Shown here: positions 14,192 to 38,666 of the stretch, in pieces
Layout of the letters: each line of letters opens with the position of its first letter
Numbering within the stretch: the first letter of the stretch is position 1
Source: Archangium gephyra
GTDB lineage: Bacteria; Myxococcota; Myxococcia; Myxococcales; Myxococcaceae
Length of the DNA: 64,000 nucleotides
Direction: 5' to 3'
Assembly (NCBI RefSeq): GCF_001027285.1
Contig: NZ_CP011509.1
Coordinates: forward strand, 2,550,501-2,614,500
The notes under the pieces: generated by a model
The model's input: the letters and a program-made list of their open reading frames with translations, nothing else
Told to the model about the DNA's origin: nothing
Databases searched by the model: none
Translations under genes and position numbers: made by a program

Positions 14192-14731
14192 ATGAGGCTC
14201 GTTTGTACTCTCCCTGTCCTTGTCGCGCTGGTCGGCGCGCCCACCGTCCATGCCGACGACAATATGGAATGGAGGGGCACACAGCCTCAGGTCCTTGGAA
14301 AAAGCTGCCAGGAGCTCACGATGGATAATTGTCTCTTCATCGACGAGGCCATAGCGAATTGCCCGGAGACCTGCGCACGAAGGAATGAAGGCAAGGAGCC
14401 AGAGGCGCCTGCCGGGTCCCAGGCTCCATCCTCAGACACTGACTCAGACCCTGAGCTGGCCCGTCTTCGCAGGCTGCCGAGGGCAGAGCTGCTTGAAGGC
14501 TTCAAGAAGGATTGCGCCCAGACCGTGGGGCGGGTTTCCACGTACTTCGCCGAACCGGTGGCAAGGCAGGCCTATGTCAACCGCTGTTTCGCGCTGATCC
14601 TGAAGGCATGGGACAGCAAGTCGCCTGAGTTCAGGGAGCGCATGGCCAAGGTCAAGGAAAAGGTCAAAGGCGAATACCGGACTGCTTGTGAGAAGAAGAG
14701 GAAGAAGAAGGCAGCCGAGACCAAGAACTGA
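14192..14731 (+). CDS. small exported Cys-containing protein, unknown
   Basis: 179 aa with a clear signal peptide (MRLVCTLPVLVALVGAPTVHA) preceded by AAGGAG seven nt before the ATG. The mature N-terminus has paired cysteines (SCQELTMDNCLF, NCPETCARR), an acidic Ser/Asp linker follows, and the C-terminal half is basic and helical, ending in a Lys-rich tail. I recognise no family. The open frame begins earlier (14108), but the signal peptide supports 14192. Confidence 0.7.
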   Translation: MRLVCTLPVLVALVGAPTVHADDNMEWRGTQPQVLGKSCQELTMDNCLFIDEAIANCPETCARRNEGKEPEAPAGSQAPSSDTDSDPELARLRRLPRAELLEGFKKDCAQTVGRVSTYFAEPVARQAYVNRCFALILKAWDSKSPEFRERMAKVKEKVKGEYRTACEKKRKKKAAETKN

Positions 14732-14878
14732 CGGCCCGGTCAGAGAGCCTGTCGCTCGGCATCTTGAAGTCGACGCGGAACACCTCGTCCCAGGTCGCCG
14801 CGGTGCCCGGTCCCTCGCGCCGGGAGCCCTGCGCGTAGCGGGCCTCCTCCTCGCCCGGCCTCGCCGCTGCTGGGCGTG

Positions 14879-19205: not shown

Positions 19206-19230
19206 TTCACAATTGCCTGCGTGGAACGTC
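19206..19230 (+). promoter_or_regulatory. ECF-type promoter (15-nt spacer) for 19295 operon
   Basis: TTCACA at 19206 and CGTC at 19227 are separated by 15 nt. This is the same pair of elements as in the regulon promoters, one nt shorter. It lies about 65 nt before the ATG. Confidence 0.45.
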
Positions 19231-19294
19231 TCTAGGGAGACCTGCCTGGCGCCTTCAGCCGGGCACAGTTGCTCGTCCTGAGCGGGAGGGTTTG

Positions 19295-19888
19295 ATGAGG
19301 ATCTTGAATGTTGGTGCGGGTGACCGCCCCCTGTCCAAGCATGACCTGAGCATGGACCAGGGGTTCGTTGTCAATTACGACCCTGGGCTCGAGCTCGCAC
19401 AAATCGAGCAGTATGCCTTCCGGTCACTGAACGCTGGGCGCATCTTCTTCAACTATTTCGAGGACAACGTCTCTCCCCATGACGTCGTCTACTTCGGAAA
19501 CATGCGGGACTTGAAAGCCTACTTTCGCGAGAGTTCCTTCGAGACCATCCTCTCCGTCTCGCCGTATGGCTTCCACGTCATCAATCCAGACACGAACCCC
19601 TTCCTGGGAATGGGCGGGAAGGTGCTCACCCTCGGGAACGCGCGGAATCAGTGGCTCGATGTGCGGTTCACCGATGACGAGGTCCCTGGAATCTTCGCGC
19701 CTGGATTGAGCCGCGATTATTCAAGCTACTCCATCCCTGACAGTCCCGTGGATCCATGCAGGTTCATCTCCGAGAGAATCCAGGCGGAGTACGTCTCCTT
19801 CACGACCGCGCCAGGGCAGGGCCAGAGTGGCATGCTGCAGCGGACGGCGCTGGATGTCGTCAAGGCCTTCACCAAGAACAACCTCTAA
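19295..19888 (+). CDS. unknown protein, possible methyltransferase-like fold
   Basis: 197 aa from ATG 19295, preceded by GGGAGGG. The N-terminus RILNVGAGDRPL followed by an Asp at the end of the next strand (NYDPGLEL) resembles the SAM-binding motif I of class I methyltransferases; a later segment reads ILSVSPYGFHVINP. The C-terminus is less typical and no full catalytic motif is identified. It forms a probable two-gene operon with the DUF1906-like gene 31 nt downstream. The upstream TTCACA/CGTC pair suggests it belongs to the sigma regulon of the R-body region. Confidence 0.65.
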   Translation: MRILNVGAGDRPLSKHDLSMDQGFVVNYDPGLELAQIEQYAFRSLNAGRIFFNYFEDNVSPHDVVYFGNMRDLKAYFRESSFETILSVSPYGFHVINPDTNPFLGMGGKVLTLGNARNQWLDVRFTDDEVPGIFAPGLSRDYSSYSIPDSPVDPCRFISERIQAEYVSFTTAPGQGQSGMLQRTALDVVKAFTKNNL

Positions 19889-19918
19889 CTCCGCCGCACC
19901 TTTCACCAGGAGACACGA

Positions 19919-20611
19919 ATGGGAACACCGGCCAATTTGTTGCTGGGAATCGTCCAGGGTGCGCCGCCGGGCGTCCTCGGGGTGGACTCCGACTCGCCAC
20001 TGAGCTTCGCCACGGCCAAGGCGCTGCACGACCTCGGGTACCGCTTCTGTGCCCGGTACCTTTCGCTGGGCTCGTCCCAGGCTCCCGGAGACCTCTCCTC
20101 CCAGGAAGCCGCCGACATCCTGCGCGCCGGCCTCTCCCTGGTCCCGGTCCAGCATGTCCTCAAGGCAGGCTGGAGCCCGAGCGGTGATCTGGGGACACGG
20201 CATGGGCAGGCGGCGCACGACAACGCGGTGAATCTCGGCATCCCCCCGGGAGTCAACCTCTGGTGCGACCTGGAGGGGTGCGCACACAACACCAGCCACC
20301 AGGCCATCATTGATTATTGCAACGCGTGGTTCGAGGCGGTGGAGGACCAGGACGCGGGCTACATTCCGGGGCTCTACGTCGGGTTCGACGCGTTCCTGTC
20401 CTCGGAAGAGCTCTACGGGGCGCTGCGGTTCCAGCATTACTGGAGTGCCCCCCAGGCAACGCTGGTGGATTCGCGGGGCTATCAGCTGCTTCAGCTGCTC
20501 CCACTGAACCAGCAGCTCGCCGGAGTCTACGTCGACGTGGACGTCACCCAGCAGGACCTCAAGAAGGGCAGCGTGCAGTGGCTGGCGCCCGCGAAGGCTC
20601 CAGTCGTTTGA
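19919..20611 (+). CDS. DUF1906 glycoside hydrolase-like protein
   Basis: 230-aa protein of the Rv2525c/DUF1906 group, which has a TIM-barrel related to GH25 lysozymes. Visible family segments are GVDSDSPLSFATAKALHDLG near the N-terminus, CARYLS, a beta-strand ending in an acidic pair (NLWCDLEG) and YIPGLYVGFDAF. No signal peptide is seen, which is unusual for a wall-acting enzyme and fits a role inside the cell or export by lysis. It is downstream partner of the 19295 gene. Confidence 0.75.
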   Translation: MGTPANLLLGIVQGAPPGVLGVDSDSPLSFATAKALHDLGYRFCARYLSLGSSQAPGDLSSQEAADILRAGLSLVPVQHVLKAGWSPSGDLGTRHGQAAHDNAVNLGIPPGVNLWCDLEGCAHNTSHQAIIDYCNAWFEAVEDQDAGYIPGLYVGFDAFLSSEELYGALRFQHYWSAPQATLVDSRGYQLLQLLPLNQQLAGVYVDVDVTQQDLKKGSVQWLAPAKAPVV

Positions 20612-20685
20612 GTGCTCGCGGTTGGAACGTTTAACGGGCTCGTGCCCGCCGCCCTGGGCAGCAGCGGCGGGCGCGAGGTGCCTGG

Positions 20686-22343
20686 TCAGAAGCCCTGCTC
20701 GGACGTGCCCCTCAAGGTGGCGAGCAGACGCTGACCGTTGGGGCTGCCCCACCCGGTGCAGGCGTCCCAACCCGGGCCCGCCGCGTAGCCACCAATGCGG
20801 CCGAAGGTAGGGTCGTTGGTGCCCACGGTGATGTCATTGCAGCCCACCCTCCCAAGCGAGGCATACAACAGCGGATTGAGGTAGCCGACAGGCCTGCCCA
20901 GCTGCTGGTTGAGCCGGGCGATCAGGCTTGCCCAGAGCGGCGCCGCGGCGCTGGTGCCACCGACGGCGCCTCGCTCTCCCTTGCTCACGACGAGGTAGCC
21001 CGTGTAGGGATCGGCATTGGCGGCCACGTCCGGCACGCCCCGTCCGAGCCTGTGCCCTGGGTTGACCGAGGCGGGGACCTGGGCGTTGCCCTGCCAGGAC
21101 GGCCGCGCGAAGTACGCGCTGATGCCGCCGCCCCCGGCGCCGCCTCCCGGCTGGAGCTGCGAGCCCGTGTTCCACACCTTCTCCTCGGTGATGGCGCCAC
21201 CGTTGGCGAGGAGGGTGGTTCCGCCCACGGCCAGCGCGTAGGGGCTGGAGGCCGGGAAGACGACGTGGGCGTAGCCGTCCTGTTCCTGGGCCTCCGAGCC
21301 GTCATCCCCCGAGGCGACGCAGACCGTGATGCCCAGCGTGGCGGCCTCTTGCAGCAGCTCGTTGACCTCCTCCATGCAGGCGGGTGTCCAGATGGAATCC
21401 ATCTCGCTGAAGCCCCAGCTGATCGACAGGACGGAGGGCTTGTTCTCCGTGTCGTGGATGGCGGCGGCGAGGCTGTCCACCCAACCCTTCTCCGTGAAAT
21501 CGGAGAAGTAGACCGCCTGCCGGGCCAGGGGCACCAGCGCCCCCACCACCTCCATGTCCAGCTCGACCTCTCCCGTACTGGCGCCCTGCGAGCTGCGGGG
21601 GTCCTTGGACCTCGAGGGCGTGTTGCGCACGCCGTCCACCGAGACCGCCACCACCTCGGGCATGGGGAGGCCGAGGTCGCGCGCGCTCTGCTCCACATCT
21701 TCTGGGAAGTACCCCCCCCGAACTCCAGCAGGCCGACACACTGGCCAGCGCCGTCGCCCTCCGGGAAGTTGTAGAGCGTGGCCAGGTCGGGAATGGAGAA
21801 CACCTGGGGCAGCTCCCGCGTGACGAGCGCGTGGCTGGTGCGCAGAGGGCGTGGCCGCGGGTGGTGGCGGATCAACCGGTGGGTATCCAGGCCGAACACT
21901 CCGGTCACCACGCCCTCCAGCTCCGCCGGCAGGGAGAGTGGACCGACGCGGCCCCGGAAGGCGCCGTCCGGGTGCTCGTAGTGCATCAGCCGCGTGGAGA
22001 AGGCGCGGTTGAAGCTCGACACCGTGCCGCCCAGTACCACCGAGCGGCGAGCGAGCTCCTTCCCCTGGACCCGCAGCCCGTGCGCGGCGGCGAAGGCCTC
22101 CACCTGGGACACATCCTCCGGGTGGGCGCCATAGGTCGTCTGGAATTGTTCGTGCCTCAGGTGCTGGCGCTGGTGGATGGGGCGCATCCCCAGGTCATCC
22201 ACCGACGGCAAGGGCCTGCGGCGGCGCAGGCGGACGGTGACCTCCAACCACTCGTTTTCGTGGGCCGCGCGCAGGACACGCGCGCCCGGCACCAGCATTC
22301 GCTCACTTCCAGCAAGGGGGACGGTTCTCTTCGGCTCTGGCAT
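20686..22343 (-). CDS. sedolisin (S53, kumamolisin-like) peptidase with 1-nt frame break
   Basis: Acid serine-carboxyl peptidase. A pro-kumamolisin activation domain (residues 1-180; VTVRLRRRRPLP, HLRHEQFQTTYG) is followed by the catalytic domain. The active-site pair is in GEVELDMEVV (Glu/Asp four apart), an oxyanion Asp is in VASGDDGS, and the Ser is in GGTSAAAPLWASL. The calcium loop DITVGTN and GWDACTGWGSP close the protein. The frame breaks at a G8 run (complement of 21712-21719): with G9 the reading LLEFGGGYFPEDVE is continuous, giving about 552 aa. ATG 22343 follows AGGAG. A regulon promoter lies at 22399-22424. Confidence 0.85.
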
Positions 22344-22398
22344 GGTGGGTACTCCTGTGGGCTCGCCACGAGGCTGTGCGGGGGTGCACATCGATACA

Positions 22399-22424
22399 GA
22401 CGGACTCGCCCCCTGGGTTGTGAA
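22399..22424 (-). promoter_or_regulatory. ECF-type promoter for sedolisin
   Basis: On the minus strand, TTCACA (22424-22419), 16 nt, then CGTC (22402-22399). It lies 56 nt before the ATG. Confidence 0.65.
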
Positions 22425-22446
22425 TCGCTCCCGGCCCACCCCGCCT

Positions 22447-22704
22447 TCATACTCCTGGAACCGACTTGCCGCCCTCCCCCGCGGCCGAGAGGATCATCTT
22501 GACGGCCACCGTGACCGTGGCGGTGCTGATCTGTTGCATGGCCTGCTGTTGGTTGGAGGAGTTCTGCATGGACAGGCCCACGGCCTGTGACAGCAATTGA
22601 TAGACAACGCTCAGTGCCGCGGCTGGCGACTCGGCCACGACCTTGACGTTGGTCTGTGTGACAGCGTCGGTGACCCGGCTGTCGACTCCGAGCGGATTCG
22701 CCAT
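22447..22704 (-). CDS. RebB-family R-body protein
   Basis: 85-aa RebB ('killing trait') family protein, the structural/assembly family of refractile R-bodies. The family signature is VTDAVTQTNVKVVAESPAAA, followed by YQLLSQAVGLSMQNSSNQQQ and a Thr/Ala-rich helix. It is the last gene of a four-gene set (23703, 23149, 22740, 22447) reading minus. It lacks the C-terminal NMSDLPTA segment of its longer paralogues, so it corresponds to a short variant. Confidence 0.85.
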   Translation of the reverse strand: MANPLGVDSRVTDAVTQTNVKVVAESPAAALSVVYQLLSQAVGLSMQNSSNQQQAMQQISTATVTVAVKMILSAAGEGGKSVPGV

Positions 22705-22739
22705 GAGGAAGCTCCTTCATCAAAGGCAAGCGGGAGCTC

Positions 22740-23087
22740 TCACGAAGAGGGGAAGTTCTTGAGGACGGTGGCCGAGGTCTCTCCCACCTGCTGGAAGAGC
22801 GCGGCGGCCTGGGTCATGGCGGTCTGGGCCGCCGCCAGCGCCTTGGTGGCGTTGTCCGTGTTCTGTCCGGCGAGGATCATCCCCAGCGCGACACCATTGG
22901 TGGCGGTGCTGACGGCGGCGACATTGCGCAGGTACTCGACGATGTCCTGGATGGCGATCGCCGTCGATTGGGCGACGTGTTGGTAGGCCATGCCCGAGCC
23001 CGCCGCCCGGGCTCCTTGCAACACGTTCTTGTTGGTCTGGGTGACGGCATCCAGGATCTGCGGGTTGACGGTCGTCAGTGCGGACAT
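22740..23087 (-). CDS. divergent RebB-like protein
   Basis: 115 aa. The N-terminal ILDAVTQTNKNVLQGARAAG retains the RebB core, and YQHVAQSTAIAIQDIVEYLR matches the middle helix. The C-terminal half is distinct (TNGVALGMILAGQNTDNATK, ending QVGETSATVLKNFPSS). The same C-terminal plan (GVALRMMLTG.., YQRLGELSASLL) recurs in the 25098 gene, so these two form a second RebB-like subfamily in the cluster. Confidence 0.75.
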   Translation of the reverse strand: MSALTTVNPQILDAVTQTNKNVLQGARAAGSGMAYQHVAQSTAIAIQDIVEYLRNVAAVSTATNGVALGMILAGQNTDNATKALAAAQTAMTQAAALFQQVGETSATVLKNFPSS

Positions 23088-23148
23088 GAAAGCGTTCCTT
23101 GGCGAGGTCGGTCATGAAGGAAGTGGAGGGGGGGACTCACCGCCAGGC

Positions 23149-23592
23149 CTACGTGGAGGAACCGGAGGCCGTGGAGCCGGTGTTCGTCGTGGAGCCGCCC
23201 GCCGTGGAGCCGGTGTTCGTCGTGGAGCCGGTGTTCGTCGGGGTGCCGCCCGCCGGACCCGAGCTGGCCGCGGGGGTGGGCGTGGGAGGCGGAGGGTAGG
23301 AAGGAATGGAGTACGGGGGGATGACGTAGGGGGGGAGCACGATGGGCGGACTGATGGCGGCCTTCGAGCCCGCGGCGAGGATCTGCTGCACGGCGGCGGT
23401 GGTGGTCGCCGTGCTGACCTGCTGCATGGACTGTTGATGGCCGGCCAGGTTCTGCATCGCCATGCCCACGGATTGAGAGAGGAGTTGGTAGACGATCCCG
23501 AGCGCTGTGGAGGGCGACTCCCCCACCACCCCTACCGCCGTCTGGGTCACCGCGTCGGTGATCTGCGAGTTGACACTGTTCTGCTCTGCCAC
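23149..23592 (-). CDS. RebB-family protein with Pro/Thr/Gly/Ser-repeat tail
   Basis: 147 aa from a GTG at 23592 with GGAGG five nt upstream. Residues 1-85 are RebB-like (SQITDAVTQTAVGVVGESPS, YQLLSQSVGMAMQNLAGHQQ). The tail changes to a Pro/Tyr-rich stretch (PPIVLPPYVIPPYSIPSYPP) and then tandem TNTGST units encoded by a repeated GGAGCCGGTGTTCGTCGT block at about 23170-23245. The tail is unlike other RebB proteins and is suited to mediate polymer contacts or surface exposure (inference). Confidence 0.8.
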   Translation of the reverse strand: MAEQNSVNSQITDAVTQTAVGVVGESPSTALGIVYQLLSQSVGMAMQNLAGHQQSMQQVSTATTTAAVQQILAAGSKAAISPPIVLPPYVIPPYSIPSYPPPPTPTPAASSGPAGGTPTNTGSTTNTGSTAGGSTTNTGSTASGSST

Positions 23593-23702
23593 GAGAAACC
23601 TCCGGCTGTTGCCAGTCACCAGGAATTAGGAGCGGCCTGTTTGCGGCATGGAGGCCCGGCGGGCAACCGCGGAGCCTCCATGCCAGAAGACGGGCGTTCC
23701 GG

Positions 23703-24026
23703 TTAGAACGAGGGCGGCTTGGTCACGGTCAACATCGACGCGAGGGCCGTGGGCAGATCGCTCATGTTCACCTTGGACGTGGCCACGCTGTCCTCCGCCG
23801 TGTCGAGCGTGTAGAGGAGGTTCACACCCTGCACCGTGGCCGCCTGGCTGGACATGTTCATCTGCTGCTGCGCGGCCGCCGCGTTCTGGAACGACAGGCC
23901 CGTGGACTGAGCCATCGTCTGGTAGATGTGGCTGAGCGACATCGCGGGGGAATCCCCCAGCACCTTCACGTTGGCCTGGGTGACGGAGTCGGTGATCTGA
24001 TCATTGACTGCGGTGGGAGTTGCCAT
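23703..24026 (-). CDS. RebB-family R-body protein
   Basis: 107 aa. Starts MATPTAVNDQITDSVTQANV, continues KVLGDSPAMSLSHIYQTMAQ and ends with a conserved SKVNMSDLPTALASML segment. It is closely related to the 24146 and 26137 products. First gene of its transcription unit, with an ECF-type promoter 75-100 nt upstream. RebB family members build or assemble coiled protein ribbons (R-bodies) that unroll and puncture membranes. Confidence 0.88.
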   Translation of the reverse strand: MATPTAVNDQITDSVTQANVKVLGDSPAMSLSHIYQTMAQSTGLSFQNAAAAQQQMNMSSQAATVQGVNLLYTLDTAEDSVATSKVNMSDLPTALASMLTVTKPPSF

Positions 24027-24099
24027 GTCTGTGTGAGTCCTTTCGGTTCAGTGGGCATGCGGCCGGGATGTTGGACGCGTCTTCGCCGGCCACCGTCTA

Positions 24100-24125
24100 G
24101 ACGCGCACCCTCTGGGTTTTGTGAA
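24100..24125 (-). promoter_or_regulatory. ECF-type promoter for rebB set 23703-22447
   Basis: Minus strand: TTCACA (24125-24120), 16 nt, CGTC (24103-24100). A GGCCCGT precedes the -35 element. Confidence 0.65.
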
Positions 24126-24145
24126 ACGGGCCGGGCCGGGAACTG

Positions 24146-24463
24146 CTAGGTCACCTTCCTCACGGTCAGCAGCGAGGCGAGCGCCGTGGGCAGGTCGCTC
24201 ATGTTCACCTTCGAGGTGGCCACGCTGTCGGCCGCGGTGTCCAGGGTGTAGAGGAGGTTCACGCCCTGGACGATGGCGGCCTGGCTCAGCGTGGCCATGC
24301 GCTGCTGGGCTGCCGCCGCGTTCTGGAACGACAGGCCCGTGGACTGGGCCAGCGTCTGGTAGATGTGGCCGAGCGACATCGCCGGGGCGGATCCCAACAC
24401 CTCCACATTGGGCTGCGTGACGGAATCGGTGATCTGATCATTGACTGCGGTTTCGTCTGCCAT
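24146..24463 (-). CDS. RebB-family R-body protein
   Basis: 105 aa, with NDQITDSVTQPNVEVLGSAP, IYQTLAQSTGLSFQNAAAAQ and the shared VATSKVNMSDLPTALASLL ending. It is nearly collinear with the 23703 product (more than 75% identity by eye), so the pair arose by tandem duplication. It has its own ECF-type promoter at 24513-24538 and sits divergent from the sigma gene. Confidence 0.88.
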   Translation of the reverse strand: MADETAVNDQITDSVTQPNVEVLGSAPAMSLGHIYQTLAQSTGLSFQNAAAAQQRMATLSQAAIVQGVNLLYTLDTAADSVATSKVNMSDLPTALASLLTVRKVT

Positions 24464-24512
24464 GGTGTGGCTCTCCTGTGGCTGGCTTCTTGAGAATTGC
24501 CGCCATGGTGAT

Positions 24513-24538
24513 GACGCACGAGGCGCTCCCGTTGTGAA
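24513..24538 (-). promoter_or_regulatory. ECF-type promoter for rebB 24146
   Basis: Minus strand: TTCACA (24538-24533), 16 nt, CGTC (24516-24513), 50 nt before the ATG. Confidence 0.65.
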
Positions 24539-24586
24539 GACGCGCGCCCTCGCGATGACGGCGTGGGCCGGCGGGAGGTGCGCTCA

Positions 24587-24612
24587 TTCACAGACGGCGG
24601 GGTGGTTCCGTT
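24587..24612 (+). promoter_or_regulatory. ECF-type promoter of the sigma gene (autoregulation)
   Basis: Plus strand: TTCACA (24587-24592), 16 nt, CGTT (24609-24612). It matches the regulon promoters except for the last -10 base. The weaker -10 fits an autoregulated sigma gene. Confidence 0.6.
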
Positions 24613-24629
24613 CTACCTGGAGCCTTTTC

Positions 24630-25196
24630 TTGCGACCCGCCTCCGTGAAAATAAAATCAACCCCTGTCTCATTTTGGCAAGTGTGGCAGCGCCACCATGT
24701 GTACCTGCTCGGTCAAAGTCTCCGCTGGATGGGAGGCAACCCCGATGACGCCCAGGACGCGCTGCACATGACGATGCTTCGCGCCCATGCGTACTTCCTG
24801 AAGCAGGACCGCCCACTCGTCAATGCACAGGCCTGGTTGGGACGCATCCTCCACAATATCTGCATGGATCTCCATCGGGAGAGGCAGCGCTTCATCGAGT
24901 CTCCCGTGGAGGAGCAATCAGAGGAGCTGGACGAGCGTGCCGCCGTGCTGGACGAGTGCTCCGCCGAGGAAATCCTGCTCAAGCACGAGCGGGCCAGGGA
25001 GGTCCGGGCCTGTATCGAGAGGCTGAAGCCCCACCTGCGCGAGCCCCTGAAGATGCGCTTCCTGGACGACATGGCCTATCCAGAGATCGCCGATGCGCTA
25101 GGGCTTACGAACAGCAACGTCCGCAAGCGCGTCCAGCTCGCCTACGACGAGCTGCGCGTCTGGCTCGCGCGATTCCACCCATCCCGCCGCACCTGA
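24630..25196 (+). CDS. ECF-like sigma-70 family factor of the R-body cluster
   Basis: About 188 aa. Region 2 is visible in LRWMGGNPDDAQDALHMTML followed by RAHAYF and ARILHNICMDLHRERQRF-like sequence. Region 4 is LKPHLREPLKMRFLDDMAYP followed by EIADALGLTNSNVRKRV, a classic sigma-4 helix-turn-helix. The opening FWQVWQRHH fits the family N-terminus. Start is uncertain: TTG 24630 has GGAG seven nt before it, GTG 24645 is the alternative. Its own promoter and at least eight nearby ones share TTCACA-N16-CGTC/T. No anti-sigma gene is seen. The last 99 nt overlap the convergent RebB-like gene. Confidence 0.85.
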   Translation: MRPASVKIKSTPVSFWQVWQRHHVYLLGQSLRWMGGNPDDAQDALHMTMLRAHAYFLKQDRPLVNAQAWLGRILHNICMDLHRERQRFIESPVEEQSEELDERAAVLDECSAEEILLKHERAREVRACIERLKPHLREPLKMRFLDDMAYPEIADALGLTNSNVRKRVQLAYDELRVWLARFHPSRRT

Positions 25197-25553
25197 CGGC
25201 TCGCCGGCGGGTGGTTGGAGTTGGCTGAGCAGGGAGGCCGAGAGCTCCCCGAGCCGCTGATAGTGCGCGGTGGCCTGGCTCAGGGCCTCCTGCGCCTGCC
25301 GCAGCGCCATGCTCGCACGCTCCGGATCCCTTCCCGTGAGCATCATCCGGAGCGCGACGCCGCTGGCGGCCGTGCTGAGCTCCGCCTGCTTGCGCAACCG
25401 CTCGCCGGACTCCTGGAGCAGCAGCGCGGTGGAGGTGGCCAGCCGCTGACGGATGGGCTCGAGCACCTCCTCCCGCTCCGGCCGGGAAGGAGGCTCCCCA
25501 CTGCCGGTAGCCGGCGCTGGAGCTTGGGAGGGAGGAAGAGTTTCGTCGGACAT
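25098..25553 (-). CDS. divergent RebB-like protein
   Basis: 151 aa with a Pro-rich N-terminus (residues 5-35) and a helical core. GVALRMMLTGRDPERASMAL and YQRLGELSASLLSQL parallel the C-terminal half of the 22740 product. The DAVTQ motif is missing, so it is grouped by that similarity and by operon position after 25633. The C-terminal tail runs into the convergent sigma gene for 99 nt. Confidence 0.6.
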   Translation of the reverse strand: MSDETLPPSQAPAPATGSGEPPSRPEREEVLEPIRQRLATSTALLLQESGERLRKQAELSTAASGVALRMMLTGRDPERASMALRQAQEALSQATAHYQRLGELSASLLSQLQPPAGEPSGAAGWVESREPDAQLVVGELDALADVAVRKP

Positions 25554-25632
25554 GAGGCCTCCTCGCCAGCATGAACGGAGACAAACGGGCCGCCGCGATC
25601 CGCTGGTACCGTGGCGGCCCTCGCCCCTCGTC

Positions 25633-25974
25633 CTACCCCCGCGGCGTCTTCGCCAGACCCATGGCCACCCGGAGGGTGGCGAGCGCGGTCTCCAAGTCCG
25701 GTGTATCACTCATGTTCACCTTGGCCGTCTGCGTGGAGTCCTCCGCCACATCGAGGTTCAGGATGAGGGAGGTTCCCCGCGCCGCGGACACCCCGCTGCT
25801 CAGTGTCACCTGCTGCTGGGCAGCCACCGCGTTCTGAAAGGCCAGCCCCGTCGCATGGGCCATGCTGCTGAAGGTCTGGCCCGTCGCCAGGGACGGCGCG
25901 CTGTCCAGCACCTGGACATTGACCTGGGTGACGGCATCGGTGGCCTGGTTGTTCACGTCGGTTTCTTGAGCCAT
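25633..25974 (-). CDS. RebB-family R-body protein
   Basis: 113 aa. NNQATDAVTQVNVQVLDSAP, MAHATGLAFQNAVAAQQQVT and VNMSDTPDLETALATLRVAM show the complete RebB plan with a slightly extended C-terminus. It has no promoter of its own in the regulon pattern and probably reads through from the 26137 gene. Confidence 0.85.
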   Translation of the reverse strand: MAQETDVNNQATDAVTQVNVQVLDSAPSLATGQTFSSMAHATGLAFQNAVAAQQQVTLSSGVSAARGTSLILNLDVAEDSTQTAKVNMSDTPDLETALATLRVAMGLAKTPRG

Positions 25975-26136
25975 CTGGGATTTCCTTCGCTCGTGTATCG
26001 AGGCACGTGGAGGATGGGGGGAGCGGAGCGGGCGCCCGGCCTGGGAACGGCTTCCCGGCCCCCGGCGCTCCTCCAGCCATCAGACGGCACCTCATGGGCC
26101 GAGCGTGCTCCACGGCCCACGAGGCGCCAGCCGTTG

Positions 26137-26457
26137 CTAGGTGCCCGCCTTGGCGGCGGTCAGCAGCGAGATGAGCGCCGTGGGCAGGTCGCTCATGTTC
26201 ACCTTGGAGGTGGCCACGCTGTCGGCCGCGGTGTCCAGCGTGTAGAGCAGGCTCACGCCCTGCACCGTGGCCGCCTGGGCGGCCATGTTCATCTGCTGCT
26301 GGGCGGCCACCGCGTTCTGGAAAGACAGCCCCGTGGAGTGGGCCAGCGTCTGGTAGATGTGGCTGAGCGCCATCGCGGGGGAATCCCCCAGCACCTTGAC
26401 ATTCGCCTGGGTGACCGCGTCGGTGATCTGCCCGTTCACTGCGGTTGGAGTTGCCAT
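26137..26457 (-). CDS. RebB-family R-body protein
   Basis: 106 aa. NGQITDAVTQANVKVLGDSP, LSHIYQTLAHSTGLSFQNAV and SKVNMSDLPTALISLL make it a near copy of the 23703 product. First gene of the 26137-25633-25098 unit, with an ECF-type promoter at 26537-26562. Confidence 0.88.
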   Translation of the reverse strand: MATPTAVNGQITDAVTQANVKVLGDSPAMALSHIYQTLAHSTGLSFQNAVAAQQQMNMAAQAATVQGVSLLYTLDTAADSVATSKVNMSDLPTALISLLTAAKAGT

Positions 26458-26536
26458 CGTATCTGCTCCCTACGGTTGGGTGTGGATTGGTGCGGCGAGA
26501 GATGGCTCCGGAGAGGTTCGCGCCCACCGCTTTAAA

Positions 26537-26562
26537 GACGGGGAGCGGTCCACCTCTGTGAA
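26537..26562 (-). promoter_or_regulatory. ECF-type promoter for rebB set 26137-25098
   Basis: Minus strand: TTCACA (26562-26557), 16 nt, CGTC (26540-26537), 80 nt before the ATG. Confidence 0.65.
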
Positions 26563-26580
26563 GAGAGGGCCCGCCCGCTG

Positions 26581-27660
26581 TCACGGCGAGGAGGCGGCGC
26601 TCTTCGTCCCGCCCAGGCTCTGCCAGGACGACCAGGCCCCGCCGGGGGCCAGCTCCCAGATGTGCCAGAGCGCCCCGTCGGTTCCCTGGACGAAGACCTC
26701 CAGCCGCCCATCCGCGTTCTGCCCCACGGCGGCGGGGCCGACGAAGCTCCCCTCGAGCCCCATCCAGGGAGACCACCCGCCCGTGGCGGGGGACTGGCTG
26801 AGGTGCTGGAGCGTGCTGTCCGTGCCCTGGACGAAGGCCTGCAGCAGCCCGCTCGCCTCGCGTGCCACCGTGGGCGCCGCCCCGAGGGTGCCGCCCAGGT
26901 CCTCCCAGGAGGACCAGCCCCCGTTGGGGGCCGTCTGCCAGATGTGACAGAGCGTGCCGTCCGTGCTCTGCACGCACACCTCCAGCCGCCCGTCCGCGTT
27001 CTGCCCCACGGAAGGGGGGCCAAGCAGGCCCCCCTCCAGGCTCTGCCAGGAGGACCAGCCTCCGTTGGGGGCCGTCTGCCAGACATGCCAGAGCGCGCCG
27101 TCCTCCGCGCCTTGGGCGAAGACCTCCAACCGCCCGTCCGCGTTCTGCCCCACCGCTGGAGCGCCAGTCACGTTACCGCCCAGGCTCTGCCAGGAGGACC
27201 AGGCCCCATTGGGCGCGGTCTGCCAGAGCTGGAAGAGCGCGCCGTTCGCGCCCTGGACGAAGACCTCCAGCCGCCCGTCCGCGTTCTGCCCCACCGCCGG
27301 AGCGCTCAGAAAGCCGTCCCCGAAGGCCGTCAGCGGGGACCAGCCCCCATTGGGGCTCGTCTGCCAGAGCGTCCAGAGGCCACCGTCCGCGCCCTGGGCG
27401 AAAACCTCCAGCCGTCCATCCGCGTTGCGTCCCACCACCGGCGCGCTGATGAAGTCGCCCCCGAGGCGCTCCCAGGAGGACCAGCCCCCATTGGGGCTCG
27501 TCTGCCAGATGTGCCAGAGCTCCCCCTCCACGTTGCGGACGAAGACCTCCAGCCGTCCGTCCGCGTTGCGCCCCACCGCGGGAGCACTCCCGAGCGCGCT
27601 GGTGATGCCCAGGAAGGAAGAAAGCCCACCTCGGGTGTTGGATGCCGGCCGTGAAATCAT
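26581..27660 (-). CDS. seven-bladed beta-propeller lectin (PLL/tectonin-like)
   Basis: 359-aa protein composed of seven repeats of about 47 residues, each with the pattern P-x-VGQNADGRLEVF-V/A-QG-x-x-G-x-L-x-x-W-Q-x-x-PNG-x-W-SSW. The last strand (SSWQSLGG) completes blade one as a velcro closure. The repeat resembles the PLL/PHL fucose-binding propeller lectins of Photorhabdus and tectonin-type lectins. Blade 6 (TVAREASGLLQAFVQG) has lost the NADGRLEVF core and may be non-binding. There is no signal peptide. Promoter at 27714-27739. Confidence 0.85.
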   Translation of the reverse strand: MISRPASNTRGGLSSFLGITSALGSAPAVGRNADGRLEVFVRNVEGELWHIWQTSPNGGWSSWERLGGDFISAPVVGRNADGRLEVFAQGADGGLWTLWQTSPNGGWSPLTAFGDGFLSAPAVGQNADGRLEVFVQGANGALFQLWQTAPNGAWSSWQSLGGNVTGAPAVGQNADGRLEVFAQGAEDGALWHVWQTAPNGGWSSWQSLEGGLLGPPSVGQNADGRLEVCVQSTDGTLCHIWQTAPNGGWSSWEDLGGTLGAAPTVAREASGLLQAFVQGTDSTLQHLSQSPATGGWSPWMGLEGSFVGPAAVGQNADGRLEVFVQGTDGALWHIWELAPGGAWSSWQSLGGTKSAASSP

Positions 27661-27713
27661 TTGCTCTCCATGTTCGGTCCACCCCAGGGAAGCTCCTGGG
27701 GGCCGCACGGAGA

Positions 27714-27739
27714 GACGGCCGGAGGGCGCGGCTTGTGAA
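27714..27739 (-). promoter_or_regulatory. ECF-type promoter for the lectin gene
   Basis: Minus strand: TTCACA (27739-27734), 16 nt, CGTC (27717-27714), 54 nt before the ATG. Confidence 0.65.
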
Positions 27740-27766
27740 ACGAGCGGCCCCCGCCAGCGACCGCGC

Positions 27767-28207
27767 TCAGTCCTCTGAAGTCGAGGCGGAGCACTGGCGT
27801 TGGAAGACCCACTGGGCGAGCGCCGCTCCCATCCGGTCCGACTCCGCCTCCAGCGCGGGGTCCTTCACCACCGCGACCCCATGGCCAAAGGGGTGGTGTA
27901 CCCGTCCCGTCCGCTGCTGCACGACATGCGCGAGCTCGTGTCCCAGCAGGCGCACTCCGCGCGGCGTCTCCGGGTCGTATAGCCCCGGCGCGATGTAGAT
28001 GTGCGAGCCGCTGGTGAAGGCGAGGGCGTTGAGCTGCCGCACCCGAGCGCTCGTATGGACCCGGACCGCGGAGAAGTCCTCTCCGAAGAGCTTCTCCGCC
28101 GCCGCGCGGAGCCCGGGGGGCAGCGGCCGTCCACCTCGCGCGCTGGGGACATGCCGCTCGGGAAGCCTCAACTCCAGGCAGCGCCTCGCGTTCATGGAGG
28201 GAAGCAT
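27767..28207 (-). CDS. DUF4157 / eCIS-core-type metallopeptidase-like protein
   Basis: 146 aa. The DUF4157 domain covers nearly the whole protein: LPPGLRAAAEKLFGEDFSAV, VRVHTSA, ALAFTSGSHIYIAPG and the HExxH helix GHELAHVVQQR (His90, Glu91, His94). Such domains accompany extracellular contractile injection system cargo and other secreted toxins. This copy lacks any attached toxin domain. Its ATG abuts the stop of the 28208 gene, so the two are co-translated. Confidence 0.85.
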   Translation of the reverse strand: MLPSMNARRCLELRLPERHVPSARGGRPLPPGLRAAAEKLFGEDFSAVRVHTSARVRQLNALAFTSGSHIYIAPGLYDPETPRGVRLLGHELAHVVQQRTGRVHHPFGHGVAVVKDPALEAESDRMGAALAQWVFQRQCSASTSED

Positions 28208-29086
28208 TCAGCGCTCGAAGTAGGGCTGCAGCTTCGTCACCAGGAACGGGAACTGGCCGGTGACATCCACCGAGGTGTAGAAGCGGCTCTCCACCCCCGA
28301 CGGGTTCTCGTAGCGGAAGATGACGTCCACGATGCGGCGGGTGCCGCTCAGCTTCGAGTGTTGGACATCCACCCCGCGGAAGGCCAGCGTGTCCACCGTG
28401 AGCGAGCTCGTCTGGCTCCAGCGCAGCGTGTAGATGTCCGGGTAGTTGATGCTCACATAGTTGAGCGCCCGGGTCTCGTCCGTGTCGCCCGTGTTGGCGG
28501 CGAGCTGGAGCATGTCATTGAAGATGTTGCTCACCAGCAGCCGGAAGGTGGCCATGCTCTGGTCCTTGGCGGGACCCGCTGGCTGCTGCGTGATGAGGGC
28601 CGGCGGCGGCACGCTGTCGATGAAGGACCTGGCCGTGAAGTGGAACAGCCGGTTGACCATTGCCCCTGGGAGCCCTGCCTCTTCCCCCGCATACGCCGGC
28701 TCCTGGACTCCGATGACGACGTCGTATTCGATCTGCGTGGGATCATCGGGCTTGATGGCCTCGATCATCTCCTCCAGCTCTACCTGCGAGCGCGGCTTCA
28801 AGAAGTAGGTGGCCACGTTCTCGACCTGGAGCACCCAGGCCATCTCGCGCGCGAGGAAGATGTTCTCCTTGCGGCTCAGGACGTTGTAGAGGCGCTGGGG
28901 CTCCGTCGGCACCTGCATGTCCGCCGGAGTGAGGAGTTGCAGGTACTCCTTCTCCACGTCCCTGCTGGAGAAGTTCGCACTGAGCTGGCCAATGGCGTAG
29001 ACGTAGCCGAAGGGAGCCTCCAGCTCCGAGAACTGCACGACGGGGGCTGACCGGGGCGCGACGAGGGTAGTGGCGTTCTTTTGCAT
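28208..29086 (-). CDS. PatG C-terminal-domain-like protein
   Basis: 292 aa. Segments EAPFGYVYAIGQLSANFSSR, VEKEYLQLL, NIFLAREMAWVLQVENVATY and VDVTGQFPFLVTKLQPYFER match my recollection of the stand-alone C-terminal domain of the cyanobactin maturase PatG. That domain also occurs in myxobacteria outside cyanobactin clusters. It carries no subtilase catalytic motif, so it is not a peptidase. Assignment is from memory. It lies in an operon with the GNAT-like gene upstream and the DUF4157 gene downstream. Confidence 0.6.
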   Translation of the reverse strand: MQKNATTLVAPRSAPVVQFSELEAPFGYVYAIGQLSANFSSRDVEKEYLQLLTPADMQVPTEPQRLYNVLSRKENIFLAREMAWVLQVENVATYFLKPRSQVELEEMIEAIKPDDPTQIEYDVVIGVQEPAYAGEEAGLPGAMVNRLFHFTARSFIDSVPPPALITQQPAGPAKDQSMATFRLLVSNIFNDMLQLAANTGDTDETRALNYVSINYPDIYTLRWSQTSSLTVDTLAFRGVDVQHSKLSGTRRIVDVIFRYENPSGVESRFYTSVDVTGQFPFLVTKLQPYFER

Positions 29087-29094
29087 GTGTCCTC

Positions 29095-29742
29095 TCAGGG
29101 GGTAGGCCGTACCGGGGTGGGGACGGGCACGGTACGGAAGGTGAATCGCAAGGGGCTCGTGGCCCGGGTGCCGAGCAGCGCCCGGAGCCGTGGCATCACG
29201 CGGCTGGCATGCGCCTCGAGACGGGGCCGTCCGTGGGGCCCTTCGCCCATGGGGTGGAAGCCGAGCTTCCGGTACCAGCGCAGGAGCCGGCCCGAGCCCT
29301 GGTCATCCGCCTCGAGCCAGGCCCGGGGACGACCCCACCGGGCCCCGAGCCGCAGCGACTCGGCGAGCAGGTACCCGCCGAGGTCACGGCCCCGAAATGG
29401 CTCGCGCACCAGGAGGTTGCTGAGGTGGATGGCATCCGGACCACTCGGGCTCACGCGCACCCTGCCCAGCAGACCGCGCTCGGGAGCCTCACACAGCAGG
29501 TCCACCGCCATCGGGGCCACGCCCCTCCCGGTGGAGGAGACGCTCCCGCCGGGGCTGCCTCCAGGCGGGGAGCCCAGGGACTGCAGGGCCGTCATGGGCG
29601 GGAGTCCCCTGCCTCGAGGCGGGAGCGGGGCGGTCGGTGAGGGCCGCGGAGTCGAGGGCGCCTCGGAGCCCCGTCCGGGCACCGGCGCGGGCCGCGAGCC
29701 CGGGCTGCTGCGAGGCTGCTGTGAGGAGTGTTTGAGCCACAT
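29095..29742 (-). CDS. GNAT-like acetyltransferase with Pro-rich N-terminus
   Basis: The C-terminal 150 residues read as a GNAT fold: HLSNLLVREPFRGRDLGGYL with the acetyl-CoA loop R-G-x-D-L-G, then WLEADDQGSGRLLRWYRKLG ending in the typical YxxxGF (YRKLGFHPMG). The N-terminal part is Pro/Ser/Gly-rich. The start is uncertain: ATG 29742 is used, and GTG 29775 or ATG 29595 are possible. Another frame from 29791 (MATGERRTVSETRTHVAQTL) looks more protein-like for the first 60 residues, so a frame break near 29600 cannot be excluded. Its promoter is at 29825-29850. Confidence 0.55.
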   Translation of the reverse strand: MWLKHSSQQPRSSPGSRPAPVPGRGSEAPSTPRPSPTAPLPPRGRGLPPMTALQSLGSPPGGSPGGSVSSTGRGVAPMAVDLLCEAPERGLLGRVRVSPSGPDAIHLSNLLVREPFRGRDLGGYLLAESLRLGARWGRPRAWLEADDQGSGRLLRWYRKLGFHPMGEGPHGRPRLEAHASRVMPRLRALLGTRATSPLRFTFRTVPVPTPVRPTP

Positions 29743-29824
29743 GAGTGCGAGTCTCAGAAACAGTGCGTCGTTCACCGGTGGCCATCCCCAAGGTCTTGCT
29801 CCAGCTCCCGGCTCTTCCTTTCGA

Positions 29825-29850
29825 GACGGAGGAACCGCGCCCGCTGTGAA
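29825..29850 (-). promoter_or_regulatory. ECF-type promoter for GNAT-PatG_C-DUF4157 operon
   Basis: Minus strand: TTCACA (29850-29845), 16 nt, CGTC (29828-29825). Confidence 0.65.
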
Positions 29851-30028
29851 TCTCAATGAAATGCGGATGGGCGCCAGTGGAACTTACGGCGCCGAGGGCG
29901 CCGTCTGGCTGGCGAGACTCTGGGCCTCGTGCTGCAACCGCTCAAGGTCTGAACCACCCTCTCATTTTCGCAATCACCCGAAATCACCGGGGATTTTCAC
30001 ACCCAGCTGATTTGAAAATCCTTGAAAA

Positions 30029-30715
30029 TCATGGGGCTTTGTCGGAACCAGGGAGTGGTTGAAGCTCGAAGTCGTTGTCACTGCCGGTGTTGCTGCCGTG
30101 GGCGGACTTACTGGTCATGAGAAGCGGGAGAATGGGCCACCCAACACTGCCAAGAAGGTTGAGCGCCGTTCCAATTCCATACACCGCGGCACGGGAGAAT
30201 TCTTTTCGATGCAAGCTAAGGATACAGTCCAAAGAGAAGTGTAGTGCTTCGCGGAGGTGCGCGCCGCTCTGCGTCATGGCGCCGCCATGCACCTGTGACA
30301 AATTCCCCATGATGCTGTCGTAGGCATGCCCCGAGAGTGGGAATTGCTGCCACTTCAAGAAAGCATTCACTGGGCCTACCAACGATGCATAAAGGCTGGG
30401 ATTATACAACGCCTGCATGCCAATCTGCCGCCGCATCTCCTCGGAAGTCTGTGGCAGAAACCCTCTGAAGGATTTGCCAAACAGCGCCAACTCCATCATT
30501 CGCTGGAGCCCTTCATAGGACAGTTCATCCCCTTTGCGGTCGCTCCCCTCGTCGCTCTCCATTGCCTGTATTGCTTGCGACCCGGTCCTCCGGGTGCGCC
30601 AACGCGCCGAGGTGTTGTCCGAAGAGCGCAGTCCCTGTCTCCGTCGCGACGTACGCCCCAGGCTCATCGGAGAGGTCGGCACCAGTGACTGACTCGCTCG
30701 CATCGTAGGAAGCAT
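30029..30715 (-). CDS. unknown protein of the sigma regulon
   Basis: 228 aa from ATG 30715 with GAAGGAG before it. The N-terminal 50 residues are basic and Ser/Arg-rich. The rest is mostly helical, with a hydrophobic segment near residues 185-200 (LNLLGSVGWPILPLLM). Lower GC and atypical codons suggest recent acquisition. I recognise no family; possible membrane association. Its inclusion with the R-body genes rests on the promoter at 30738-30763. Confidence 0.65.
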   Translation of the reverse strand: MLPTMRASQSLVPTSPMSLGRTSRRRQGLRSSDNTSARWRTRRTGSQAIQAMESDEGSDRKGDELSYEGLQRMMELALFGKSFRGFLPQTSEEMRRQIGMQALYNPSLYASLVGPVNAFLKWQQFPLSGHAYDSIMGNLSQVHGGAMTQSGAHLREALHFSLDCILSLHRKEFSRAAVYGIGTALNLLGSVGWPILPLLMTSKSAHGSNTGSDNDFELQPLPGSDKAP

Positions 30716-30737
30716 GTCGTTTCTCCTTCAAAAGGAG

Positions 30738-30763
30738 GACGCACGAGCCGTGCTCGGTGTGAA
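30738..30763 (-). promoter_or_regulatory. ECF-type promoter for 30029 gene
   Basis: Minus strand: TTCACA (30763-30758), 16 nt, CGTC (30741-30738), 22 nt before the ATG. Confidence 0.65.
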
Positions 30764-30790
30764 AAGCGGAGCGGGTCCGGAGGAATCGAG

Positions 30791-30816
30791 CTCACAGCCG
30801 CCTGCCCTCGGCCGTC
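30791..30816 (+). promoter_or_regulatory. ECF-type promoter variant for 30851 gene
   Basis: Plus strand: CTCACA (30791-30796), 16 nt, CGTC (30813-30816), 34 nt before the ATG. It differs from consensus at the first -35 base. Confidence 0.5.
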
Positions 30817-30850: not shown

Positions 30851-31380
30851 ATGGTCCGAGACACCCCCCGACTGCTTCACCCTTCCTCCAGCGCACCTGG
30901 GCGCGTTGGGCGGCCCTGTCACTCAGCCTCTGTGTGGCGGGGCTGGCTCCCGCGGCGAGGGCCCAGGACAGCAAGATCGCCTGCCAGCTCGGCACCCGGT
31001 CGCTGACCTTCTCCTCCTCGGCGCAAGACGTCATGCGGGGAGGTTGGGTCATCGGGGTCTCCGTGCAGAACGCCGGCGGTCCCTCCTCGCCAGCTCCGGT
31101 GCAGCACGTGACGGTCGACACCGGCTCCGCGGTGCTCGCCATTCCCATGCCCCTCATCCGCAACCCGGAACCCATCAGGTCCCAGAAGGACCAGCCTCAA
31201 CCGGCCGCCACCCGATGTGTCACCTGCTCGAGCAGCGGCAACATGCTGGTCGGAGATTGGGTCTGGGCGGCGGTCTCGTTCTTCGACGGCAACGCGCCGC
31301 GAGGGACGGCGCAGCGGCTGCCCGTGCTCGGGGTGCGCTACGCCTGCTCCCCCAAGCAGGAGCGGCGGAGAGGAGAGTGA
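30851..31380 (+). CDS. exported protein of unknown function with probable 1-nt frame break
   Basis: From 30934 an open frame encodes a secreted-type protein (GLAPAARAQ cleavage region, then DSKIACQLGTRSLTFSSSAQ). The natural signal peptide (TWARWAALSLSLCVAGLAPA) lies upstream without a start codon. The only ATG with a ribosome site (GAGG before 30851) is one nt out of frame. A C6 run at 30864-30869 could be C7; that would join them into about 176 aa starting MVRDTPPTASPF. Four Cys (C...C..C...C) are in the mature part. No family is recognised. Confidence 0.55.
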
Positions 31381-37097: not shown

Positions 37098-37125
37098 TCG
37101 ACGCGCCGCTTCCCCGGCGGAAGCC

Positions 37126-37224
37126 GAGAAGGTGTCAAAGGATTCGAAACGCCGCCGAGAAGGTGTCAAAGGATTCGAAACGCCAGAGAAGGTGTCAAAG
37201 GACTCGTCCGGGACACCCGTCTCG
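37126..37224 (+). repeat. REP-like repeats, three tandem copies and a short hairpin
   Basis: Copies at 37124, 37156 and 37186; the last is paired with an inverted GGGACACCCGTCTCGG. The rest of the 37098-37372 gap has no gene. Confidence 0.7.
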
Positions 37225-37372
37225 GCTCCGAACCCAGCAGCTGCTCCCGAAGCAACCGCACCAGCTCATCCTCGTGCATGACGGAGCATTCTCTCGCGGG
37301 TGGACCAAAAGAAAAGGACCGCGGCCCGGACGGGGGGCACGCGGTCCCTGGACTCCACCTGCTGGAGGAGCG

Positions 37373-38479: not shown

Positions 38480-38572
38480 CGTGGGGGGCTCCGTACAAGA
38501 GAAGAAGTGAGACCTGCTCCTATTCTCGTGGGGACTGAGAAAAGGTTGCGGCGGGGGGGCGTTTTTCTGGCC

Positions 38573-38628: not shown

Positions 38629-38666
38629 CTCGAGGCCGGTCAAAGCCGGGCCTGGGGTCCCGGCAC

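What the first reader, a model, noticed from the sequence alone, without database searches (positions are those of the whole stretch)
19206..30816. A shared TTCACA-N16-CGTC promoter defines an autoregulated sigma regulon over the R-body region
Upstream of the sedolisin, three rebB transcription units, the lectin, the GNAT/PatG_C/DUF4157 operon and the 30029 gene, the minus strand has TTCACA and CGTC separated by exactly 16 nt (seven cases, on units up to 8 kb apart). The sigma gene has TTCACA-N16-CGTT, the 30851 gene has CTCACA-N16-CGTC, and the 19295 gene has the pair at 15 nt. CGTC is a well-known -10 type for ECF sigma factors. That so many starts in one block share this pair, each on the correct strand and 20-100 nt before the gene, is very unlikely by chance.
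Basis: partly seen in the sequence, partly recalled or inferred. Interest (0 to 1): 0.95.

Follow-up and report, generated by a model that had tools for sequence, protein, structure and literature searches.

The report
Sigma-factor promoter code over R-body genes
In what is likely an Archangium genome, eight near-identical two-part sequences sit in front of R-body genes, their neighbours and the gene of a sigma factor lying among them, and the same sequence surrounds relatives of that sigma gene in other species, so this sigma factor likely switches on the whole cluster and itself.

Summary
TTCACA-N16-CGTC occurs 7 times in the window, all on the minus strand at 22399-30763 (shuffle mean 0.13), and 12 times in the 12.49-Mb genome; none of the 5 outside hits precedes a recognisable start. 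The sigma gene has the CGTT variant at its own start. The decisive evidence is elsewhere: loci of sigma relatives in Archangium violaceum, a Myxococcus and six loci of the Corallococcus genus carry 4, 5 and 2 each of the exact motif (expected about 0.02 per locus). With YTCACA-N15/16-CGTY the six Corallococcus loci hold 37 sites, 35 before a start codon; eight loci of a paralogous sigma clade hold none (154 kb), and six reb loci without a linked sigma hold one. The six Corallococcus loci have no reb genes: there the code stands before patatin, SDR/PHA, C25-like and GH19 genes. So R-bodies look like one cargo of an ECF sigma lineage with a fixed promoter code. A sigma (FecI2) controlling R-bodies is known in Pseudomonas aeruginosa PA14; my searches found no report of this code or of myxobacterial reb clusters. 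No transcript was measured; the activating signal is unknown.

The parts
24630..25196 (+). ECF-type sigma factor gene (TTG start with GGAG ahead; GTG 24645 is the alternative)
   Evidence: Pfam Sigma70_r4_2 2.8e-12 and Sigma70_r2 3.5e-5; the best PDB profile hits are ECF sigmas; two helical domains with a disordered linker in the model
24587..24612 (+). TTCACA-N16-CGTT, predicted autoregulatory promoter of the sigma gene
   Evidence: a site ahead of sigma in the 9 best-scoring sigma loci
22399..22424 (-). TTCACA-N16-CGTC before the sedolisin gene
   Evidence: ATG at 22343, 55 nt on
24100..24125 (-). TTCACA-N16-CGTC before rebB 23703-24026 (downstream reb genes likely in the same unit)
24513..24538 (-). 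TTCACA-N16-CGTC before rebB 24146-24463
26537..26562 (-). TTCACA-N16-CGTC before rebB 26137-26457 (25633-25974 and 25098-25553 likely in the same unit)
27714..27739 (-). TTCACA-N16-CGTC before the lectin-like repeat protein
29825..29850 (-). TTCACA-N16-CGTC before the GNAT / PatG_C / eCIS-core operon
   Evidence: the matching operon of G111 (L080) has TTCACA-N15-CGTC 42 nt before its GNAT start; GNAT 51%, PatG 63%, eCIS-core 55% identical
30738..30763 (-). TTCACA-N16-CGTC before gene 30029-30715
19206..19230 (+). TTCACA-N15-CGTC before gene 19292-19888
30791..30816 (+). CTCACA-N16-CGTC; downstream reading frame unsure
   Evidence: CTCACA sites also occur in 6 of 6 Corallococcus-genus loci
20686..22343 (-). 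sedolisin-like peptidase, frame broken at a run of G at 21712-21719
   Evidence: Pro-kuma_activ and Peptidase_S8 in two frames; sequence
22447..24463 (-). five RebB-family genes (22447-22704, 22740-23087, 23149-23619, 23703-24026, 24146-24463)
   Evidence: PF11747 hits, four over the cut-off and 22740-23087 just under it
25098..26457 (-). RebB genes 26137-26457 and 25633-25974, and Reb-like 25098-25553 (no Pfam hit)
26581..27660 (-). lectin-like repeat protein (FG-GAP_3, DUF346)
27767..29775 (-). GNAT acetyltransferase, PatG_D/PatG_C protein, eCIS-core protein
30029..30715 (-). protein of unknown family
19292..19888 (+). protein of unknown family, followed by the glycoside-hydrolase-like gene 19919-20611

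Best explanation
The block is a local regulon: the ECF-type sigma factor encoded at 24630-25196 is predicted to bind -35 TTCACA and -10 CGTC set 16 nt apart, and so likely turns on its own gene together with the sedolisin, reb, lectin, GNAT/PatG/eCIS-core, 30029 and 19292 units. Shown by sequence: the sites, their strand, spacing and place before starts; their rarity elsewhere in the genome; their recurrence around relatives of this sigma gene in other genomes. Inferred: that this sigma, not another, reads them, and that transcription starts just after the CGTC. Unknown: what releases the sigma (no anti-sigma gene was recognised beside it) and whether R-bodies form. In relatives the same sigma-promoter pair stands over other cargo, so the unit that is kept in evolution seems to be the pair, with R-bodies as one load.
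For: 7 exact sites against 0.13 by shuffling; 7 of 12 genome-wide in 8.4 kb; 4 of 7 block sites and 0 of 5 outside sites before a start by one rule. Independent genomes: 4 in G004 C311 (expected 0.023), 5 in G111 C57 (0.016), 2 in each of 6 Corallococcus-genus loci (0.023-0.026). YTCACA-N15/16-CGTY: 22 sites in the three reb+sigma loci (13 before a start), 37 in the six Corallococcus-genus loci (35 before a start); reversed pattern 0 in both sets; window outside 14-34 kb 0 in 44 kb. Controls: paralogous sigma clade 0 sites in 8 loci, 154 kb; reb loci without linked sigma 1 site in 6 loci, 107 kb. Site ahead of the sigma gene in the 9 best-scoring loci. Precedent: FecI2 and RcgA are required for rebP1 expression in PA14 (PMC8322103, passages).
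Against: No transcript, binding or mutant data. The window sigma sits on a long branch and its place in the tree is unsure; motif-bearing loci are not one clade (9 changes). Looser relatives (8 loci) also have 15 sites in 151 kb, 7 before a start, so several sigmas in a genome might read the code. L120-L122 lack a site at the sigma gene itself. In-window look-elsewhere test not decisive. Coding status does not cleanly separate outside hits from block hits.
Confidence: 0.85

Rival explanations
1. The sites are ECF-type promoters but are read by another sigma factor of this large genome, and the local sigma gene is merely one more target.
For: The genome gave 59 and 91 first-look candidates in the two sigma searches; looser relatives of the sigma also sit among such sites.
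Against: Across genomes the sites cluster around this sigma lineage and are absent around a sister clade (0 in 154 kb); the six Corallococcus-genus loci keep sites and sigma without reb genes.
Confidence: 0.1
2. The sites bind an activator or repressor (for example a Crp/Fnr-type protein, since TCACA is, from memory, half of a Crp box) rather than a sigma factor.
For: Crp/Fnr genes accompany reb and sigma genes in Ruegeria and Burkholderia and in Raymann's Group 2 synteny.
Against: No Crp domain among the 20 frames of 19.2-32.6 kb put through Pfam and no tblastn hit of the Burkholderia Crp protein in the window; the site is two unlike boxes at a fixed 15-16 nt with an unconstrained spacer, as in a -35/-10 pair, and not a palindrome.
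Confidence: 0.04
3. The sites are copies spread by duplication of reb genes with their upstream DNA, without function.
For: The eight RebB-like genes are paralogues in one block.
Against: Spacers and flanks are unlike each other; four of the seven exact sites precede genes that are not reb; sites recur before unrelated genes in other genomes.
Confidence: 0.01

Closest known systems
FecI2 and the reb cluster of Pseudomonas aeruginosa PA14 (PMC8322103, PMC4362757)
   Same: A sigma factor gene inside a reb cluster, required for reb transcription; alternative sigma factors there are reported to be autoregulated (passages).
   Different: PA14 also needs the regulator RcgA; no Crp-type gene was found in the block here. 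The FecI2 logo is only in a figure and could not be compared; its protein sequence was not compared either.
Reb-associated sigma factor HP2.3 with cyclic-nucleotide regulator HP2.4, Group 2 synteny of Raymann 2013 (PMC3583457, section 11 read, other passages)
   Same: Sigma beside reb. Ruegeria pomeroyi and two Burkholderia plasmids show the arrangement. Ruegeria has [GT]TCACG-N15-CGTC before three units; each Burkholderia has TCACG-N15-CGTY before two reb units and one exact TTCACA-N16-CGTC, in B. pyrrocinia 171 nt before the annotated gene that leads into the reb genes.
   Different: Those sigmas are far off (26% identity for Ruegeria; long branches outside the others). The word promoter does not occur in the paper's main text.
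ECF (group 4) sigma factors in general
   Same: Region 2 plus region 4 only, -35/-10-like boxes with a 16-nt spacer, site at its own gene.
   Different: No recognised anti-sigma gene next to it; of the 25 best of 75 NCBIfam hits only the superfamily TIGR02937 reached its cut-off.
reb operon of Rhodospirillum centenum (PMC4340629, passages)
   Same: Seven R-body genes in operon RC1_1993-1999 induced up to 50-fold in cysts; a sigma gene RC1_2001, close by number, rises early in development.
   Different: The passages do not link the two; no sequence was available here.
reb operon of Azorhizobium caulinodans (PMC5527310, passages)
   Same: Clustered reb genes under tight control.
   Different: Controlled by PraR and RebR; the word sigma does not occur in its main text.

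Membership tests
ECF (group 4) sigma factor | Sigma-70 region 2 and region 4 domains without regions 1 and 3 | tested here: met
   188 aa, r2 and r4_2 by Pfam, two helical domains with disordered linker, best PDB profile hits ECF sigmas; r2 sits at its curated cut-off (24 against 24 bits)
ECF (group 4) sigma factor | Own promoter of the same class as the targets | tested here: met
   by sequence only: TTCACA-N16-CGTT at 24587-24612, and N15/N16 sites in the 9 best-scoring loci
ECF (group 4) sigma factor | Cognate anti-sigma gene nearby (usual, not universal) | tested here: not met
   no such domain among the 20 frames of 19.2-32.6 kb put through Pfam; a short or novel anti-sigma would be missed
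Reb-associated sigma (HP2.3 / FecI2 type) | Gene lies within a reb cluster | tested here: met
   24630-25196 between rebB genes
Reb-associated sigma (HP2.3 / FecI2 type) | Crp/Fnr-type partner gene in the cluster | tested here: not met
   none among the Pfam-tested frames, none by tblastn in the window; present in Ruegeria and Burkholderia
Reb-associated sigma (HP2.3 / FecI2 type) | Same sequence subfamily | tested here: inconclusive
   Ruegeria and Burkholderia sigmas fall outside on long branches; FecI2 sequence not at hand
Sigma-dependent reb promoter | Transcription start 5-10 nt after the -10 and sigma dependence | not testable with these tools
   needs RNA ends and a deletion strain
R-body gene cluster | Several RebB-family (PF11747) genes | tested here: met
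   six genes over the Pfam cut-off, one at its edge, one Reb-like by alignment

The most novel reading that the evidence does not exclude
Myxobacteria carry a portable control module, an ECF sigma gene plus YTCACA-N15/16-CGTY promoters, that is kept constant while its cargo is swapped: R-bodies with sedolisin and eCIS-core proteins here, R-bodies with PHA enzymes, patatin and GH25 lysozyme elsewhere, and patatin, PHA enzymes, C25-like peptidase and GH19 without R-bodies in Corallococcus. The module fires all units at once in committed cells, so that a contractile or storage body is made together with the enzymes that open the cell and release it. The same code reaches reb clusters of proteobacteria.
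Probability: 0.35. Interest if true: 0.75.

Novelty: new variant of a known kind. Interest (0 to 1): 0.58.

Why it matters
It gives a readable promoter code for R-body control, so regulons can be listed from sequence and tested with point mutations. It places R-bodies, studied so far mainly in proteobacteria, in a defined regulon of likely predatory soil bacteria, together with peptidase, lectin-like and eCIS-core genes that become candidates for partners of R-body action. It also separates the control module from the cargo: relatives have patatin, PHA and lysozyme-type genes behind the same code.

Tried and rejected
Look-elsewhere dyad count inside the window: not decisive, told above. Sigma search in viral contigs: no relative. 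Sigma search in PLSDB with the window protein: 31 records, all under 60% identity; of these only the Ruegeria record was followed, through its reb hit. Reb loci of Azospirillum, Eleftheria and Bealeia: no sigma by my profiles, no TTCACA/CTCACA site; looser TCACG patterns there 0-3 per locus. Burkholderia: TCACG-N15-CGTY is common on these plasmids (30 in 880 kb, 44 in 1.26 Mb), and one of the three per locus lies in the crp gene, so two plus the one exact site count as support. TGTGAT upstream of some sigma sites was looked at by eye in the outputs; its distance is not constant. The Ruegeria pattern was chosen after seeing the upstream regions, so its count (3 of 4 on the 491-kb megaplasmid in the reb cluster) is post hoc. 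The Fisher test (p 4.4e-6) treats six close Corallococcus-genus loci as independent, which they are not; its background is 29 of about 95 out-of-locus hits (those held as loci, after dropping L074, which is the L139 site). Two queries in my script file (sedolisin N part, GNAT) were in a wrong frame with internal stops, found; they were also used, so those calls say nothing on these two genes; GNAT was compared again. Structure model: mean pLDDT 69.5, used only for domain layout; no fold search made.
Full report
OBSERVATION. TTCACA-N16-CGTC occurs 7 times in the 64-kb window, all on the minus strand between 22399 and 30763 (shuffle mean 0.13, maximum 1 of 100). In the whole genome (12,489,432 bases, one contig) it occurs 12 times, 7 of them in this 8.4 kb; the reversed pattern occurs 4 times. 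By a mechanical rule (Shine-Dalgarno start 15-120 nt downstream) 4 of the 7 block hits and 0 of the 5 outside hits precede a start. Whether the outside hits are coding is not settled: frames over 100 codons cover all 12 sites, and frames with third-position GC of 0.8 or more cover 4 of 5 outside and 3 of 7 block sites. With TTCACA-N15..17-CGTY the genome has 39 hits, 9 in the block, control 14. The '30851 gene' is doubtful: the ATG at 30851 is out of frame with the frame that looks coding.

GENES. Pfam gives RebB for seven genes (22740-23087 just under the cut-off), sigma-70 regions 2 and 4 for 24630-25196, a pro-kumamolisin domain and a peptidase S8 domain in two frames of the sedolisin, FG-GAP/DUF346 repeats for the lectin-like protein, and GNAT, PatG_D/PatG_C and eCIS_core for the operon at 27767-29775. 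Genes 19292-19888 and 30029-30715 have no family. 25098-25553 has no Pfam hit but aligns with reb-cluster genes of relatives. The sigma protein reaches the NCBIfam superfamily TIGR02937; none of the other 24 families shown (of 75) reached its cut-off. Its best profile hits in the PDB are ECF sigmas, and its model shows two helical domains and a disordered linker (mean pLDDT 69.5).

INDEPENDENT GENOMES. The motif was fixed from this window and then counted elsewhere. A close sigma relative lies in G004 (contig of 25,282 bases, the length of the Archangium violaceum Cb vi76 contig found by name; 'same genus' as the window, hence my inference that the window is Archangium) and in G111 (contig of 575,551 bases, as Myxococcus sp. 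RHSTA-1-4). Both have reb clusters. Exact motif counts: 4 in 25.3 kb (expected 0.023) and 5 in 19.9 kb (expected 0.016); in six loci of genus g26 2 each (expected 0.023-0.026). I call g26 Corallococcus because three of the six contigs match Corallococcus contigs in length. Ahead of the sigma gene a site is present in all 9 of these loci: N16 in the window, G004 and G111, N15-CGTT in the six. With YTCACA-N15/16-CGTY the three reb+sigma loci hold 22 sites (13 before a start by rule) and the six g26 loci 37 (35 before a start); the reversed pattern is absent from both sets. By the rule, 28 of 37 exact sites at sigma loci against 5 of 29 elsewhere precede a start; the g26 loci are close relatives, so the p-value of 4.4e-6 is too kind.

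CONTROLS. Eight loci of a paralogous sigma clade: 0 sites in 154 kb. Window outside 14-34 kb: 0 in 44 kb. Six reb loci without a linked sigma of this kind: 1 site in 107 kb, in G104, 64 nt before a LuxR-type gene that heads the reb run; G104 has a sigma relative 1.8 Mb away, itself without an exact site around it. Against a tidy picture: eight loci of looser relatives show 15 sites in 151 kb, 7 before a start, in L123, L130-L132 and L136; L135 and L139 have 8 sites, 8 before a start; L119-L122 have 7, 3 before a start; and the motif-bearing rows do not form one clade (9 changes). So the code belongs to a wider ECF lineage, and more than one sigma may read it.

CARGO. In G004 and G111 sites precede reb genes, a patatin-like protein (PF01734) and the gene after the sigma. 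In G111 a TTCACA-N15-CGTC also stands 42 nt before a GNAT/PatG/eCIS-core operon whose proteins are 51%, 63% and 55% identical to those of the window. A GH25 gene lies in the same G111 cluster without a site of its own by this pattern. The six Corallococcus loci have no reb hit, and the RebB search of 193 relatives found hits in 10 genomes, none of genus g26. There sites precede patatin, an SDR of PhaB type next to a PhaC gene, a C25-like peptidase, a GH19 gene and a 101-aa protein of no family (families tested on one or two of the six). L135 has a C39-like peptidase and L120 a protein with a NAL1_N domain behind sites.

OTHER PHYLA. On the Ruegeria pomeroyi megaplasmid a Crp/Fnr gene, a sigma gene and reb genes lie together; [GT]TCACG-N15-CGTC stands before three of its units and occurs 4 times in 491,611 bases. 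Two Burkholderia plasmids have reb, crp and sigma together (the second is unannotated, its crp found), with one exact TTCACA-N16-CGTC each, 171 nt before the annotated gene that leads into the reb genes in the first, and TCACG-N15-CGTY before two reb units; that looser pattern is common on these plasmids. The TCACG patterns were chosen after looking, and the sigmas are distant (26% for Ruegeria), so this is a lead.

LITERATURE. PMC8322103 (passages): FecI2 and RcgA are required for rebP1 expression in PA14. PMC4362757 (passages): FecI2 has a primary regulon of 28 genes and a logo in a figure that I could not read. PMC3583457 (passages and section 11): sigma HP2.3 and regulator HP2.4 accompany Group 2 reb loci. 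PMC13430693 (passages): sigma factors co-localise; promoter, Archangium and Myxococc- do not occur in its main text. PMC4340629 (passages): R. centenum reb operon induced up to 50-fold in cysts, sigma RC1_2001 also changes. PMC5527310 (passages): PraR and RebR control reb. No paper held TTCACA, sigma factor and CGTC together; 'ECF sigma factor' with 'R-body' gave one, on P. fluorescens (listing, passages); the search for two of myxobacteria, R-body and RebB gave 14, none of whose titles or abstract starts reports a myxobacterial reb cluster (listing). These searches cover open-licence papers and no figures.

MECHANISM. Best reading: an ECF sigma, once free and active, likely binds these promoters, including its own, and starts the units of the block together. 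Steps shown: sites, places, genome-wide rarity, recurrence with the sigma lineage. Steps inferred: which sigma, where transcription starts, positive feedback. Unknown: signal, anti-sigma or other partner, and whether the Reb proteins form R-bodies. That CGTC is a usual ECF -10 and that TCACA is half a Crp box are recalled, from no call.

VERDICT. Interest 0.58: the kind is known from Pseudomonas; the code, the myxobacterial lineage and the swapped cargo appear new within my searches.

Noticed in passing
window 21712-21719 (-): The sedolisin is split between two frames at a run of eight G; sequencing error or slippage cannot be told apart here.
   Followed up: no
window 30851-31380 (+): The ATG behind the CTCACA site is out of frame with a downstream frame that starts like a signal peptide; a run of six C lies between.
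   Followed up: partly
L125-L129, L133, L134, about 100 nt upstream of the sigma gene: Seven of the eight loci of the paralogous sigma clade without the motif share two palindromes of the form CTGACATGTCAG / CTGACATGCCAG, perhaps an operator of another regulator (by eye).
   Followed up: no
L048 (G104) 14305-14736 (-): A reb run is headed by a LuxR-type gene with one TTCACA-N16-CGTC 64 nt ahead; the sigma relative found in that genome is 1.8 Mb away.
   Followed up: partly
L045 and L049: PHA-synthase-like, PhaB-like and patatin genes lie beside reb genes, and in Corallococcus-genus loci without them.
   Followed up: partly
window 37000-49300: Dyad TGGCCA-N15-TGGC occurs seven times with unlike spacers.
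   Followed up: no
L139 and L135, upstream of sigma: TTCACA-N16-CGAT in both, a possible weaker autoregulatory site.
   Followed up: no
L080 369-2407: GNAT, PatG_C and eCIS-core trio shared between the window's reb cluster and that of a Myxococcus (51%, 63% and 55% identity).
   Followed up: yes
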